Source of the DNA: Caballeronia sp. NK8
GTDB taxonomy: Bacteria; Pseudomonadota; Gammaproteobacteria; Burkholderiales; Burkholderiaceae
Length of the DNA: 64,000 bases
Assembly (NCBI RefSeq): GCF_018408855.1
Contig: NZ_AP024322.1
Coordinates: 1,364,001 to 1,428,000, forward strand
Direction: 5' to 3'
Below are positions 7,774-64,000 of the stretch, one piece after another. Every line of letters starts with the position of its first letter. Position 1 is the first letter of the stretch. A model generated the notes under the pieces. The model ran no database searches, had not been told where the DNA came from, and was given only the letters and a program-made list of their open reading frames with translations. The translations under genes and the position numbers were made by a program.

Positions 7774-9867
7774 ATGTCTCAAGCAACACCGCAGGCCAAA
7801 GATCTCGATCGTCTGACGATCGACACCATCCGTACCCTCTCGATGGACGCCGTGCAAAAGGCCAATTCCGGCCACCCCGGCACGCCGATGGCGCTTGCGC
7901 CCGTCGCCTTCCATCTCTGGCAGAACCATCTGCGCTACGATCCCGACGCGCCGCTCTGGCCGAATCGCGACCGCTTCGTGCTGTCGGTCGGTCACGCGTC
8001 GATGCTGCTGTATTCGCTGCTGCATCTGGCGGGCGTGAAGGAATTCGGCCAGGACGGCAAGCCGACCGGCAAGCCCGCGGTCTCGCTCGACGACATCGAG
8101 CATTTCCGGCAACTCGACAGCAAGACGCCGGGCCACCCGGAATACCGCATGACGACCGGCGTCGAAACCACGACCGGCCCGCTCGGGCAGGGTCTCGGCA
8201 ACAGCGTCGGCATGGCGATGGCCGCGCGCTGGAAGGAAGCTCACTTCAACAAGGGCAATGACACGATCTTCGATTACCGCGTCTACGCACTGTGCGGCGA
8301 CGGCGACATGATGGAAGGCGTATCGCACGAAGCGGCGTCGCTCGCGGGGCATCTGCGGCTGTCGAACCTCATCTGGATCTACGACAGCAACCGCATCACG
8401 ATCGAAGGTCACACGGACCTCGCGTACAGCGACGATGTCGAAGCGCGCTTTCACGGCTACAACTGGCATACGCTGCACGTAGACGACGCCAACGACGCCA
8501 GCGCGCTCGAAGACGCGATCAACAAGGCGAAGTCCCACACCGACAAGCCGACGCTGATCGTCGTGAAGAGCATCATCGGCTGGGGCGCGCCGCACAAGCA
8601 GGACACGTCCGGCGCGCACGGCGAGCCGCTCGGCGAGGACGAAATCAAGCTCGCGAAGAAGTTCTACGGCTGGCCCGAGGACAAGCAGTTTTACGTGCCC
8701 GACGGCGTCATGCAGCATTTCGCCGACGGCATGGGCGCGCGCGGCAAGAAGCTGCACGCCGAGTGGAAGCAGCGCTTCGACGCCTACGAGAAGTCGAATC
8801 CGGAGCTCGCGAAAGAAGCGTGGCAGATGCTCCAGAACAAGCTGCCTGAAGGCTGGGACGCCGATATTCCCACCTTCGAGCCGGACGAAAAGGGCATCGC
8901 GACGCGCGATTCGTCGGGCAAGGTGCTCAACGCGATCGCGCCGCGCCTGCCCTGGCTGATCGGCGGCTCGGCGGATCTGTCGCCTTCGACCAAGACGAAC
9001 CTCAAGTTCGAGGGCGCGGGCAGTTTCGAACACGACAGCTACGACGGGCGCAACCTGCATTTCGGCATCCGCGAGCACGGCATGGGCGCGGTCTGCAATG
9101 GCCTCGCGCTATCCGGATTGCGGCCGTATGGATCGACGTTCCTGATCTTCAGCGACTACATGAAGCCGCCGATCCGACTCTCCGCGATCATGGAAGTGCC
9201 GGTGATCTACGTGTTCACGCACGATTCGATCGGCGTCGGCGAAGATGGACCGACGCATCAGCCGATCGAGCAACTGGCGTCCTTGCGCGGCGTGCCGGGC
9301 CTCTCGACGCTGCGTCCCGCCGATGCGAACGAAGTGGCTGAAGTGTGGCGCGTCGCGCTGTCGCATCCGAAGGAGCCGTCGTGCATCGTGCTGACGCGCC
9401 AGCCGCTGCCGACTTTCGATCGCAAGAAATACGCATCGGCCGATGGCGTGAAGCGCGGCGCGTACGTGCTCGCCGATACCGAAGGCGGCAAGAAGCCCGA
9501 AGTGCTGCTGCTCGCGACGGGCAGCGAAGTGTCGCTGTGCGTCGAGGCGTACGAGAAGCTGAAGGCCGAGGGCATCGCGGCGCGCGTCGTGTCGATGCCG
9601 TCATGGGACATCTTCGAGAAGCAGGATCAGGCGTACAAGGACTCGGTGCTGCCGCCGGACGTGAATGCGCGCGTGTGTGTCGAGCAGGCCGCGACGCTCG
9701 GCTGGGATCGCTACGTCGGCCGCCTGGGATCGCAGATCGTGATGCACACGTTCGGCGCGTCGGCGCCATTGAAGGCGCTCAAGACGAAATTCGGCTTCAC
9801 GCCGGAGCGCGTCTACGAAGAAGCGAAGAAGCAGATCGCGCGCGTGAAATCCAACGGCAAGGAGTGA
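7774..9867 (+). CDS. tktA: Transketolase
   Basis: A full-length transketolase of 697 residues. It moves a two-carbon ketol unit between sugar phosphates in the pentose phosphate pathway, using thiamine diphosphate and Mg2+. SGHPGTPMALAP near the N-terminus, the cofactor segment starting GDGDMMEGVSHEA at about 172 and the pyrimidine-domain GIREHGMGA near 430 are diagnostic. The start at 7774 follows AAAGGAG; an upstream in-frame extension of 50 residues lacks family similarity. gnd follows six bases after the stop, so the pair forms a pentose-phosphate operon ending at the terminator at 10881. Confidence 0.97.
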   Translation: MSQATPQAKDLDRLTIDTIRTLSMDAVQKANSGHPGTPMALAPVAFHLWQNHLRYDPDAPLWPNRDRFVLSVGHASMLLYSLLHLAGVKEFGQDGKPTGKPAVSLDDIEHFRQLDSKTPGHPEYRMTTGVETTTGPLGQGLGNSVGMAMAARWKEAHFNKGNDTIFDYRVYALCGDGDMMEGVSHEAASLAGHLRLSNLIWIYDSNRITIEGHTDLAYSDDVEARFHGYNWHTLHVDDANDASALEDAINKAKSHTDKPTLIVVKSIIGWGAPHKQDTSGAHGEPLGEDEIKLAKKFYGWPEDKQFYVPDGVMQHFADGMGARGKKLHAEWKQRFDAYEKSNPELAKEAWQMLQNKLPEGWDADIPTFEPDEKGIATRDSSGKVLNAIAPRLPWLIGGSADLSPSTKTNLKFEGAGSFEHDSYDGRNLHFGIREHGMGAVCNGLALSGLRPYGSTFLIFSDYMKPPIRLSAIMEVPVIYVFTHDSIGVGEDGPTHQPIEQLASLRGVPGLSTLRPADANEVAEVWRVALSHPKEPSCIVLTRQPLPTFDRKKYASADGVKRGAYVLADTEGGKKPEVLLLATGSEVSLCVEAYEKLKAEGIAARVVSMPSWDIFEKQDQAYKDSVLPPDVNARVCVEQAATLGWDRYVGRLGSQIVMHTFGASAPLKALKTKFGFTPERVYEEAKKQIARVKSNGKE

Positions 9868-9873
9868 ATCATC

Positions 9874-10854
9874 ATGCAGATCGGCATCGTGGGACTGGGA
9901 CGCATGGGTGGCAACATCGGGCGGCGTCTGATGCGCAGCGGGCACACGTGCGTCGTGTACGACCACAACCCGCAGGCGACCGAGGCGCTCGCCAGTGAAG
10001 GCGCGACGGGCGCGAAGGATCTGGGCGATCTCGTCGCGAAGCTGGCCGCGCCGCGCGTCGTCTGGCTGATGCTGCCCGCGGGCAAGATCACCGAGGACAC
10101 GCTGAATGATCTGCACAAGAGCCTCGGCGCGGACGACGTGATCATCGACGGCGGCAACAGCTTCTACAAGGACGATATCCGGCGCGCCGCGCAGTTGCGC
10201 GAGCAGGGCATTCATTACGTCGATGTCGGCACGTCGGGCGGCATCTGGGGACTGGAGCGCGGCTACTGCATGATGATCGGCGGCGACGAAGCGGTCGTGC
10301 GCCGGCTCGATCCGATTCTCGCGACGCTCGCGCCCGGACGCGGCGACATTCCCGCCACGCCGGGCCGCGAAGGACGCGATGCGCGCGTCGAGAACGGCTA
10401 TATGCATTGCGGGCCGGTCGGTTCGGGACACTTCGTGAAGATGGTGCACAACGGCATCGAGTATGGACTGATGCAGGCGTATGCCGAAGGCTTCCACATC
10501 CTCAGGCACAAGGAATCGAAGGATCTGGCGGAAGGCGAACGCTATACGCTCGATCTCGCGGATATCGCCGAAGTATGGCGGCGCGGCAGCGTGGTGTCGT
10601 CATGGCTGCTCGATCTGACCGCCGGCGCACTCGCCACCGATGGCACGCTCGAACGCTTCTCGACGGAAGTCGCGGACAGCGGCGAAGGGCGCTGGACCAT
10701 CGAGGCGGCGATCGAGGAAGCGGTGCCGGCGCAGGTCTTGTCGGCGGCGCTTTACACGCGCTTCCGCTCGCGCGATGCCGAATCGTTCCCCGAGCGCATG
10801 CTCTCCGCGATGCGCTTCGGCTTCGGCGGGCACCACGAGTTTCCGGCGAAGTAG
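9874..10854 (+). CDS. gnd: 6-phosphogluconate dehydrogenase, decarboxylating (short form)
   Basis: A protein of 326 residues, the short, often NAD-preferring Gnd/YqeC type (the long enterobacterial form is about 470). It converts 6-phosphogluconate to ribulose 5-phosphate with release of CO2. [13 protein letters not shown] at residues 7-19 is the dinucleotide-binding start. [10 protein letters not shown], near residue 120, is the substrate signature; [14 protein letters not shown] near 190 contains the catalytic Lys and Asn. It is coupled to tktA. The next step of the pathway feeds transketolase, so the pairing makes metabolic sense. Confidence 0.95.
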
Positions 10855-61503: not shown

Positions 61504-62205
61504 GTTTTTACTCCTGCGGGTAGGGTTTGATCATAGCCGAAAAGGGGGGGCGGGCGGGGCGGTTCGCTTGGGCCTCGATGGATTACCTGATTTCGCGTCG
61601 GTCTATTAGCACTGCCCCTGTGCGGGGCGGCAGTCACTTTCTTTGCTGCTGCAAAGAAAGTAACCAAAGAAAGCAGCTTTCCCCATCCAAAGTACTTCAT
61701 GCCGGCCGCGGCACAGGCGAACAGTCTTGGCACAGCAGTAGCGAGTGCCCTCAAAGGCCAGACCGGGCTTGGACCGCGCACGGTCTGAAACATCGCACCA
61801 CATAACACACTGGTTCAGCACCAAATGGCTCCGGCCCGCTACGCGGCCGATGGGTCAATCGGGCCTGCGTGGACTTCTGCGTTTCTCTTATCTCGTCGGT
61901 TTCCCTTGCATACCCAACGGCAGCGCGCAGCGCTGTGCCGGAACTCTTTCGTGCTGAACCAACACGCTCAAACGACTAGCTTGTCAGACCGTGCGCGGTC
62001 CATGCCCGGTTAGGCCTACGAGGGCACTCGCTACAGAGGCCACGAACAGCGAGAAGAACACCCAAATTGCGTATGACCGCGGGCGTCTCGAGCTGCTTTC
62101 TTTGCCTACTTTCTTTGCAGCAGCAAAGAAAGTAGGTGCCGCCCCGCACAGGGGCAACGCCAATAAACCGACACGAAATCAGGCCATCCACAGAAGCCCA
62201 AAAAA
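61504..62205. repeat. Composite inverted repeat between argE and mfd
   Basis: This gene-free stretch is built as a nested palindrome. Arm A is 61579-61678 on the left and 62091-62190 inverted on the right, 100 bases each without indels and about 88% identical by eye. Arm B is 61738-61788 and 61984-62034, 51 bases each, about 90% identical. Arm C is a perfect 11-mer, 61811-61821 and 61951-61961. Arm A contains a perfect 11-bp hairpin (61636-61661, CTTTCTTTGC with GCAAAGAAAG) and GCCCC-TGTGC-GGGGC. It ends 15 bases before the mfd stop. Short open frames inside are translated repeat, not genes. Confidence 0.88.
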
Positions 62206-64000
62206 TCACCGAACAGCAGAAGCCGGCTGCCTAACCGGCCCGCCCAACGCCCGTAACGTCTCCTTGACCGTGGAAATCCGCACCGCAAGATCCGGACTCC
62301 GCGACTCGATGCGCAACTTGTCCTGCCCCGCCAGCTTGATGTGCTTGTGCTTCTGCACCATCTCGATGATCGTCATTGCATCCACCGGCGGATTCGGCAC
62401 GAACTGCAGCGAGATGGACTGCTCGGCCGCGTCGATCTTGGAGATGCCGAGCGGCTTCGCAGCCAGCCTCAACCGATGCGTCTCCACCAGCGCATGCGCC
62501 TGTGGCGGCAGCTTGCCAAACCGGTCGACGAGCTCTTCGAGAATCCCATCGATCGCATCGCTGGATTCGCAGTTCGCGAGCCGCTTGTACAGCGACAAAC
62601 GCTCCTGCACGTCGCCGCAATATTCGGCCGGAAGAATGGCCGGCGCATGCAGATTGATCTCGGTCGTGGCAGCCAGCGGCGCATTCAGATCCGGCTCGCG
62701 GCCTTCCTTCAGCGCGCGCACCGCGTCGTTCAGCATGTCGGTGTAAAGCTGAAAGCCGATCTCCTGAATCTCGCCCGATTGCTTGTCGCCGAGCACTTCG
62801 CCCGTGCCGCGAATTTCCAGATCGTGCATCGCGAGATAGAAGCCCGAACCGAGTTCCTCCATCTGCTGGATCGCCTCCAGCCGTCGCTGCGCCTGCTTCG
62901 TCAGCGACTGCGGATCGTGCACGAGCAGATACGCATACGCCTGGTGATGCGAACGCCCCACGCGCCCGCGCAACTGATGCAACTGCGCAAGCCCGAACTT
63001 GTCCGCGCGATGCATGAGGATCGTGTTCGCGCTCGGCACGTCGATGCCGGTCTCGATGATCGTCGTGCACAACAGCACGTTCGCGCGCTGGCCGACGAAA
63101 TCGCGCATCACGCGTTCGAGTTCGCGCTCATGCATCTGACCATGCGCCACCGCGATGCGCGCTTCGGGCACCAGCGCTTCGAGCATCGTGCGCCGATTCT
63201 CGATCGTCTCGACTTCGTTGTGCAGGAAGTACACCTGACCGCCGCGCTTGAGTTCGCGCAGCATCGCTTCGCGAATTACGCCGTCTTCCTCGCGCCGCAC
63301 GAAGGTCTTGATCGCGAGGCGCTTTTGCGGCGCGGTCGCGATCACGGAGAAATCGCGCAGTCCTTCGAGCGCCATGCCGAGCGTGCGCGGAATCGGCGTC
63401 GCGGTGAGCGTGAGCACATCGACTTCGGCGCGCAGCGCCTTCAAGGCTTCCTTCTGGCGCACGCCGAAACGATGTTCCTCGTCGATGATCACGAGCCCGA
63501 GCCGCTTGAACTTCACATCGCCCGACAGAAGCTTGTGCGTGCCGATGACGATATCGACACTGCCATCGTTGATCTGCTGAATTGCCGTCGATACTTCCTT
63601 GCCGGTCTTGAAGCGCGACAGCTCCGCAATCCGCACGGGCCAGTCCGCGAAGCGGTCGGTGAAGGTCTGCGTGTGCTGCTCGGCGAGCAGGGTGGTCGGC
63701 GAGAGAATCGCTACCTGCTTGCCGCCCATCACCGCGATGAACGCGGCGCGCAGCGCCACTTCCGTCTTGCCGAAGCCGACGTCGCCGCACACGAGGCGGT
63801 CCATCGGCTTGCCGCTCGTCATGTCGCCGATCACCGCGGCGATCGCCGCCGCCTGATCGGGCGTCTCCTCAAAGCCGAAGCTCTCCGCGAACTTGACGTA
63901 ATCGCGCGGTTCGAGCTTGAACGCATAACCCTCGCGAGCCGCGCGGCGCGCATAGAGGTTGAGAAGTTCCGCGGCGGTGTCGCGGATCTGCTGCGCGGCC
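62206..64000 (-). CDS. mfd: Transcription-repair coupling factor Mfd, N-terminal part outside window
   Basis: The last 598 residues are visible. The RecG-like translocase motor starts with the FGFEETPDQAAAIAAV segment, then Walker A GDVGFGKTEVAL, the DExH box IIDEEHRFGV, LTLTATPIPRTLGM and the TRG region with GRVGRSHHQAYAYLL. A C-terminal TRCF domain (from about EIGFQLYTDMLNDAV) holds the UvrA-binding inhibitory part. Mfd removes RNA polymerase stalled at lesions and recruits UvrA. The frame is open to base 64000, so the start lies beyond the window. Its 3' end abuts the composite repeat. Confidence 0.96.
   Translation of the reverse strand, partial: AAQQIRDTAAELLNLYARRAAREGYAFKLEPRDYVKFAESFGFEETPDQAAAIAAVIGDMTSGKPMDRLVCGDVGFGKTEVALRAAFIAVMGGKQVAILSPTTLLAEQHTQTFTDRFADWPVRIAELSRFKTGKEVSTAIQQINDGSVDIVIGTHKLLSGDVKFKRLGLVIIDEEHRFGVRQKEALKALRAEVDVLTLTATPIPRTLGMALEGLRDFSVIATAPQKRLAIKTFVRREEDGVIREAMLRELKRGGQVYFLHNEVETIENRRTMLEALVPEARIAVAHGQMHERELERVMRDFVGQRANVLLCTTIIETGIDVPSANTILMHRADKFGLAQLHQLRGRVGRSHHQAYAYLLVHDPQSLTKQAQRRLEAIQQMEELGSGFYLAMHDLEIRGTGEVLGDKQSGEIQEIGFQLYTDMLNDAVRALKEGREPDLNAPLAATTEINLHAPAILPAEYCGDVQERLSLYKRLANCESSDAIDGILEELVDRFGKLPPQAHALVETHRLRLAAKPLGISKIDAAEQSISLQFVPNPPVDAMTIIEMVQKHKHIKLAGQDKLRIESRSPDLAVRISTVKETLRALGGPVRQPASAVR

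What the first reader, a model, noticed from the sequence alone, without database searches (positions are those of the whole stretch)
61579..62190. Composite 612-bp palindrome made of three nested repeat modules
The region between argE and mfd is not just one hairpin. Three distinct modules (A 100 bp, B 51 bp, C 11 bp) occur in inverted pairs in the order A-B-C-spacer-C-B-A. A and B have equal lengths on both sides and roughly 88-90% identity, while the A-B linkers (59 and 56 bases) are unrelated. Conserved modules with diverged linkers suggest selection on, or repeated mobilisation of, the modules. Module A itself contains a perfect 11-bp stem. Candidates include a non-autonomous mobile element, a dispersed terminator-like repeat or a nucleoid-protein site.
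Basis: seen in the sequence. Interest (0 to 1): 0.7.

Follow-up and report, generated by a model that had tools for sequence, protein, structure and literature searches.

The report
Dispersed self-homogenising palindromic gene-end repeat
The 612-base palindrome is one of roughly sixty copies of a ~600-base, hairpin-rich DNA repeat that sits at the ends of genes in this bacterium and its relatives; the copies keep their sites for long evolutionary times yet are rewritten to match the other copies of their own genome, which makes them a natural test case for how large palindromes survive in bacteria.

Summary
The palindrome belongs to a dispersed family: 114 A-palindromes, roughly 60 elements, in this 9.2-Mb genome; 38 of 58 genomes of the genus carry it, Caballeronia judging by named records. 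The two "unrelated" linkers are family-wide types; the element has polarity. Elements lie just after stop codons; 0 of 51 contexts remain divergent after Pfam checks. Many occupy the same sites in different species, yet in 41 of 45 same-site pairs the copy is less alike than the median copy of its own genome, and a tree groups interiors by genome (6 label changes, shuffled mean 25), while the outer ~38 bp follow the site. That is concerted evolution, best explained by gene conversion. Loss runs from full element to a ~90-bp mini-hairpin joined at a 5-bp repeat, or to a ~25-bp scar. Insertion is slow; one case is polarised. Flanks show a mirrored G+T skew (0.72-0.73; controls 0.50-0.54). I saw no target-site duplication, parent transposase or linked RAYT. 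Hairpin cutting plus repair from other copies is my inferred driver. My searches listed no paper on this family.

The parts
61570..62199 (.). whole element, alpha half on the argE side, beta half on the mfd side
   Evidence: ends set by alignment with other copies; both ends are of the GGGCTTCTATGG.. type
61570..61612 (.). left outer end, site-specific part
   Evidence: outer ends follow the site, not the genome, in ten G000-G004 pairs
61613..61632 (.). left hairpin hp1 (TGCCCCTGTGCGGGGCGGCA)
   Evidence: 192 of 244 arms carry this exact 20-mer, 25 the CCCC variant
61637..61660 (.). left A palindrome
   Evidence: core identical in 239 of 244 arms; 114 sites in the genome
61679..61737 (.). linker 1, type 1
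   Evidence: same linker type in other copies and genomes
61738..61788 (.). module B, alpha arm
   Evidence: 51 nt, 90% complementary to 61984-62034; conserved in the family
61811..61835 (.). module C, alpha arm
   Evidence: 25 nt, 84%
61836..61936 (.). asymmetric centre that gives the element its polarity
   Evidence: centre halves of one element differ (G000 0.35 against 0.60 between elements)
61937..61961 (.). module C, beta arm
61984..62034 (.). module B, beta arm
62035..62090 (.). linker 1, type 2
62109..62132 (.). right A palindrome
62137..62156 (.). right hairpin hp1; its GGGGC is one of the two direct repeats at which mini-elements are joined
   Evidence: sequence; junctions
62157..62199 (.). 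right outer end, 6 bp before the mfd stop codon
60280..61503 (-). argE-like gene (neighbour, not part of the element)
62206..63834 (-). 3' part of mfd (neighbour, not part of the element)
   Evidence: ORF; orthologues found in 25 of 25 genomes

Best explanation
SHOWN: the palindrome is one copy of a ~600-bp, polar, quasi-palindromic, apparently non-coding repeat present in dozens of copies at gene 3' ends in Caballeronia-group genomes. Many copies sit at the same site in several species. Their interiors are homogenised within each genome while the outer ends stay site-specific. At the same sites other species hold ~90-bp mini-palindromes, ~25-bp scars or nothing. INFERRED: the homogenisation is ectopic gene conversion, and its trigger is the palindrome itself. 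It folds out as a hairpin, is now and then cut by a hairpin nuclease such as SbcCD, the break is resected and repaired by RecA from another dispersed copy, and the interior is rewritten. When replication or repair slips across the base of the hairpin instead, the interior is deleted between short repeats. The element is mainly a selfish or neutral, break-prone repeat that is tolerated at gene ends and not in promoter regions; a host benefit, such as REP-like protection of mRNA 3' ends, is possible but untested.
For: Copies. Shared sites: (53 pairs with both flanks matched). Homogenisation: in 41 of 45 testable same-site pairs the partner is less alike than the median own-genome copy, first in 1 of 45; tree 6 label changes against a shuffled mean of 25.1, as low in 0 of 200. 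Ends by site: outer 38 bp 0.87/0.88 between orthologues against 0.77/0.74 otherwise, permutation p < 1e-4, ten pairs; a rare end variant is shared by L241 and L277. Arm exchange: linker types differ by genome; interior reversed relative to its flanks in 8 of 45 pairs. Decay; minis in 16 of 58 genomes, all with full palindromes, 0 of the 20 without. Break footprint (weak): inward-strand G+T 77% at 0-10 bp falling to 58% at 100-200 bp, equal on gene-3' (0.73) and gene-5' sides (0.72), controls 0.50 and 0.54; these are the strands left single after a break and 5' resection. SbcCD and RecA act on a 246-bp interrupted palindrome in E. coli (passages of PMC3315005).
Against: No break, nuclease or conversion event was observed; sbcCD was not searched for. 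The spacer between the main arms is long, and the cited SbcCD work used artificial palindromes. The interior keeps some site signal too (0.746 against 0.68, p = 3e-4), and 4 of 45 pairs lie above the own-genome median (all G000-G004). The G+T skew could be part of the insertion itself (the L268 filled site has about 15 G/T-rich bases that empty sites lack), and substitution types in the flanks are mixed. Stop-free frames are somewhat longer than in shuffled sequence (132 against 109 codons, sd 24), so a coding role is not fully excluded.
Confidence: 0.55

Rival explanations
1. An actively transposing MITE- or REPIN-like element moved in trans by a DDE or HUH/RAYT transposase; minis and scars are excision footprints.
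For: Inverted ends with sharp borders, many copies, one polarised insertion, one PF01797 gene per genome in 24 of 25 same-genus genomes.
Against: No target-site duplication visible in the flanks listed; no insertion difference in the 14 G004 elements compared with G000, only deletions and IS insertions; the PF01797 gene also occurs in genomes without palindromes and no A palindrome or hp1 lies within the 4-kb stretch around it in the 4 genomes read.
Confidence: 0.2
2. A functional gene-end element: a two-way transcription or mRNA-stability signal kept by selection (REP/BIME-like), with homogenisation as a by-product.
For: 0 of 51 divergent and 20 convergent contexts against 40 and 44 of 243 background pairs; module A conserved between genera while interiors differ; co-varying stem blocks GTCA/TAAC, CCTA/TAGG, CTTA/TAAG.
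Against: No terminator excess; loss at many sites in G004 and G009 and absence in 20 of 58 genomes; one copy inside a likely operon; avoidance of promoters alone would give the same gene-end bias.
Confidence: 0.15
3. Independent re-insertion of each genome's own current copies at a shared set of hot spots, instead of gene conversion.
For: Interiors cluster by genome; sites are all of one kind.
Against: Outer ends, including rare variants, follow the site and not the genome; re-insertion would bring its own ends.
Confidence: 0.07

Closest known systems
BIME / REP elements and REPINs (RAYT-associated)
   Same: Dispersed, extragenic, palindromic, mosaic; inverted pairs of hairpins; loss of the inner part leaves a long palindrome with one hairpin, as PMC3116915 describes for REPINs (passage). 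Evolution by gene conversion was raised for REPs long ago (title of Higgins et al. 1988, seen only in that paper's reference list).
   Different: ~600 bp with fixed polar architecture, against 20-40 bp REPs (abstract of PMC3733652 in the listings); no RAYT link; conversion tested here by same-site comparison across species.
MITEs
   Same: Non-autonomous look, inverted ends, many copies.
   Different: No target-site duplication seen, no parent transposon found, long-lived sites, strong internal modules.
Rfam RF02421 Bp1_684 (predicted Burkholderia sRNA)
   Same: Aligns to the A module on the outward strand over hp1 and GCUAAUAGACCG (36.9 and 28.5 bits).
   Different: Both matches are below the gathering score of 44; it covers one end only. 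That it is a piece of a related repeat is my inference; the main text of PMC3521395 does not mention 684 or repeats (supplements not seen).
A-bounded palindromes of Paraburkholderia (sister families seen here)
   Same: Same A module at both ends (L137, L153, L121, L373).
   Different: Another interior, again palindromic: arms 223 nt at 87% (L137), 233 nt at 88% (L121), 139 nt at 89% (L373).

Membership tests
MITE | terminal inverted repeats | tested here: met
   two end types, inverted at the two ends of nearly all listed copies
MITE | target-site duplication | tested here: not met
   read by eye: the flanks are G/T-rich reading inward on both sides, so no direct repeat is visible; no close empty/filled pair with conserved target
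MITE | ends shared with an autonomous transposon in the genome | tested here: inconclusive
   the two long copies hold an unrelated IS inside; no systematic search for a parent element
REP / REPIN | 20-40-bp hairpins tagged GTAG or CGTC | tested here: not met
   hp1 is preceded on the outward strand mostly by GTGAC (GTCA inward in 183 of 244 arms); GTAGG in 29 of 244
REP / REPIN | copies beside a RAYT gene | tested here: not met
   4 of 4 PF01797 stretches read (G000, G004, G006, G012) lack both motifs
BIME | mosaic, extragenic, downstream of genes | tested here: met
BIME | built from REP units that bind gyrase, IHF or Pol I (recalled) | not testable with these tools
   binding cannot be tested; no REP unit recognised
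RF02421 Bp1_684 | covariance-model score of at least 44 bits | tested here: not met
   36.9 and 28.5 bits
intrinsic terminator | GC-rich hairpin followed by a T run | tested here: not met
   2 sites against 1.4 expected, none in modules A-C

The most novel reading that the evidence does not exclude
A large natural palindrome family that keeps itself alive by being broken: hairpin cleavage at one copy is repaired from another, so the genomic population is rewritten as a unit while its sites stay fixed, a break-and-repair drive without a dedicated enzyme. Sister families with the same A-module ends and different palindromic interiors would mean that the ends are the functional core and the interiors are exchangeable.
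Probability: 0.3. Interest if true: 0.8.

Novelty: new variant of a known kind. Interest (0 to 1): 0.62.

Why it matters
Long palindromes are usually described as unstable in bacteria; [quoted passage not shown] Here dozens of ~600-bp quasi-palindromes per genome persist at the same gene ends across species, and the comparison shows genome-wide homogenisation together with a decay series. That makes ectopic gene conversion between dispersed non-coding repeats, and the fate of palindromes, measurable in laboratory strains. It also warns that same-site copies mislead as phylogenetic markers, and that a predicted sRNA family (RF02421) may be a fragment of a related repeat.

Tried and rejected
Rejected: a local inverted duplication (dozens of copies elsewhere). 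An autonomous long version: the two copies with 1.7-kb spacing (L246, L249) hold an IS with an HTH_38/rve transposase (IS30 family by recall), and L242 holds another IS. An intrinsic terminator. RAYT linkage. Minis as independent mobile units. A phage origin: no match in the phage collection.

Inconclusive: coding (longest stop-free frames 132 against 109 codons in mononucleotide shuffles; element lengths vary by steps that are not multiples of three; no protein search was made). An RNA-strand test by wobble pairs: the A stem favours the outward strand (A.C on the inward strand in 79% of 244 arms), but module B has wobbles on the inward strand. Substitution types in the flanks. Consensus folds.

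Corrected on the way: the ORF heuristic called 2 of 51 contexts divergent; Pfam shows that in both (L026, L029) the left gene ends at the element, giving 20 convergent, 31 co-directional and 0 divergent. Uncorrected, 2 of 51 against 40 of 243 gives p = 0.016; corrected, p = 5e-4, but the background was not corrected in the same way. A stricter caller labelled 3 of 8 element gaps divergent; they are L029, L252 and L242, and Pfam shows all three are co-directional. The other contexts rest on the heuristic; of the 51 I checked L004, L026, L029 and L252. The lower similarity of the two arms within an element comes mainly from the polar centre.

First count replaced: one search used 34 pairs picked by hand (30 of 34 below the own-genome median). 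One search takes all 71 listed pairs: 53 have both flanks matched in consistent orientation, 45 of them contain a G000, G004 or G006 copy and were tested; 8 pairs between other genomes were not.

Limits: 57 G000 loci were read (49 intact pairs, 2 IS-split, 6 with one palindrome), about 108 of 114 palindromes. Of G004, G006 and G005 I read 14, 13 and 3 intact elements. The named loci are the 80 listed of at least 120 stretches, and some belong to genomes whose contig lengths equal those of G005, G006 and G021, so they are not extra species; identical cores were removed. The mini pattern with up to 3 mismatches also catches a few single element ends.

Full report
OBSERVATION. The 612-bp structure is present as described: outer arms of 111 nt (86% complementary), B of 51 nt (90%), C of 25 nt (84%). 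Its fold is far more stable than 20 shuffles (-356 against -212 kcal/mol, z = -22). By comparison with other copies the element spans about 61570-62199 and ends 6 bp before the mfd stop codon.

FAMILY. A search with the whole element scored 40 of 100 candidates in the same genome: the window copy and 39 others, the best at 93% identity over nearly full length. The palindrome CTTTCTTTGCNGCNGCAAAGAAAG (up to 2 mismatches) occurs 114 times, 0 for the reversed control. Of 57 loci read, 49 are intact pairs with a spacing of 451-493 bp, 2 are split by an IS and 6 hold one palindrome. In the genus 38 of 58 genomes have the palindrome, up to 219 sites. In a family-wide sample it is 58 of 299 genomes and 3 of 25 genera. 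The named matches listed (80 of at least 120 stretches) are mostly Caballeronia, with some Paraburkholderia and a few records filed as Burkholderia; that the window's genus is Caballeronia is inferred from this. Plasmid records with a match are 9 Paraburkholderia, 4 Caballeronia and 1 Burkholderia; no phage record matches.

ANATOMY. Alignments of 30 copies and of 122 oriented copies show, from each end inward: an outer end of one of two types (TCGCCGGATCCCG or GGGCTTCTATGGAATCCTG), hairpin hp1, the A palindrome, linker 1 (two main types), module B, a variable linker 2, module C and an asymmetric centre that gives polarity. In G006 all 13 copies read carry a type-1 and a type-2 linker, as the window copy does; in G000 31 of 49 are 2/2 and 18 are 1/2; in G004 10 of 14 are 1/1 and 4 are 1/2. 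The 24-nt palindrome core is identical in 239 of 244 arms, and the 4-nt blocks beside it co-vary.

LOCATION. For 51 copies, neighbouring genes (ORF heuristic, two calls corrected by Pfam) are 20 convergent, 31 co-directional and 0 divergent; background pairs without element are 44, 159 and 40 of 243. Fisher p = 0.002 for convergent and 5e-4 for divergent; without the correction (2 of 51) p = 0.016. Three further contrary labels of a stricter gene caller were checked by Pfam and are co-directional. The median distance to a stop codon is 23.5 bp on 66 gene-3' sides.

STABLE SITES, CONCERTED INTERIORS. At argE-mfd, 16 same-genus loci were read: full in G000, G005 and G006; cut by a contig end in G007; internally deleted in G009; a scar in G004; short without element in 8; argE not found in 2 (G003, G011). 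Flank matching among 122 elements gives 53 pairs at the same site with both flanks matched. In 45 that could be tested (flank identity 78-98%) the partner is less similar than the median own-genome copy in 41, and is the most similar in only 1 (L009/L264). Interiors cluster by genome on a tree of 76 (6 changes, shuffled mean 25.1). The outer 38 bp do the opposite in ten G000-G004 pairs (0.87/0.88 between orthologues, 0.77/0.74 otherwise), and a rare end variant is shared by site. The interior keeps a weaker site signal (0.746 against 0.68). Interior polarity is reversed relative to the flanks in 8 of 45 pairs. Gene conversion of interiors, including exchange between arms, explains this; re-insertion would replace the ends too.

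DECAY. At a six-site, 36-kb cluster and at further sites the same position is full in some species and a mini-hairpin of about 90 bp, a scar of about 25 bp, or empty in others. Minis: G004 site 4, G001 site 1, G009 sites 2 and 3, G000 at L359. Scars: G004 sites 2 and 3 and argE-mfd, G053 site 0, G000 in L354. Empty without visible scar: G001 sites 0, 2 and 3. In the minis the two hp1 hairpins are joined at the 5-bp direct repeat GGGGC (or GCCCC), which lie about 500 bp apart in the full element, as expected for slippage across a folded palindrome. The mini pattern occurs in 16 of 58 genomes, all with full palindromes, and in none of the 20 without. All 14 fetched G004 elements have a G000 counterpart: 10 intact, 2 IS-split, 1 mini and 1 scar.

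INSERTION. The L268 site is full in G004, a mini in G000, and a gap of 63-64 bp without scar in G009, G016, G053 and G007; in 7 other genomes the right flank was not found. That suggests insertion in the G000/G004 ancestor. No target-site duplication is visible.

FLANK SKEW. On the strand reading into the element from either side, G+T is 77% in the first 10 bp in G000 and 58% at 100-200 bp (G004 75/59, G006 80/59, named 74/59). It is equal beside gene ends (0.73) and gene starts (0.72), against 0.50 and 0.54 in control gaps. These would be the single strands after a break in the element and 5' resection. The base changes are mixed and the one polarised insertion carries such bases, so this is a hint only.

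RELATIVES. Four Paraburkholderia-type elements read (L137, L153, L121, L373) share the A module but have another interior; in the three tested for repeats it is again palindromic. Seven Paraburkholderia plasmid records hold 35-40 places each with a per-record cap reached. Seven Burkholderia records hold one A-like place each, of which I read one (L372). RF02421 aligns to the A module below threshold.

LITERATURE. Searches listed no paper on this family (open-licence full texts only). Of PMC3116915, PMC3315005 and PMC3521395 I saw passages; PMC3733652 only in listings.

VERDICT. A real, dispersed family of large composite palindromes, closest in kind to BIME/REPIN/MITE repeats but not a REP or MITE by the tests above. 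Concerted evolution and the decay series are shown; break-and-repair as the driver is my best inference.

Noticed in passing
L246 (G000:C2:540-542k) and L249 (G000:C2:961-963k): An IS with a 388-aa HTH_38/rve transposase (IS30 family by recall) sits inside two elements, beside module A.
   Followed up: partly
L341 around 8572-9880 (the L242 element) and the left end of L012: A second IS, ends GTGTATAGACCGGGGACAT.., is inserted in the A palindrome of two elements; not classified.
   Followed up: partly
flanks of nearly all copies, such as window 61540-61570: Mirrored G/T-rich flanks reading inward on both sides, about 60 bp deep, independent of gene direction.
   Followed up: partly
G000:C1:2659689-2659979 (L260): One single-copy PF01797 (RAYT-like) gene per genome in 24 of 25 same-genus genomes, whether or not they have the palindromes.
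   Followed up: partly
L137, L153, L121, L373: Paraburkholderia-type elements with the same A-module ends and a different palindromic interior.
   Followed up: partly
plasmid hits H32, H34-H37: The CTTTTCTTTG..CAAAGAAAAG part of an A-like module also matches Variovorax, Pasteurella and Aeromonas records.
   Followed up: no
L023, L026, L241 linker 1: A rare third linker-1 allele (CTAGGTCACGG.. or CTAGGGCACGG..) in a few G000 copies.
   Followed up: no
window 61545-61643 (-) and 62126-62211 (+): Rfam RF02421, a predicted Burkholderia sRNA, aligns to both ends of the element and may be a repeat fragment.
   Followed up: partly
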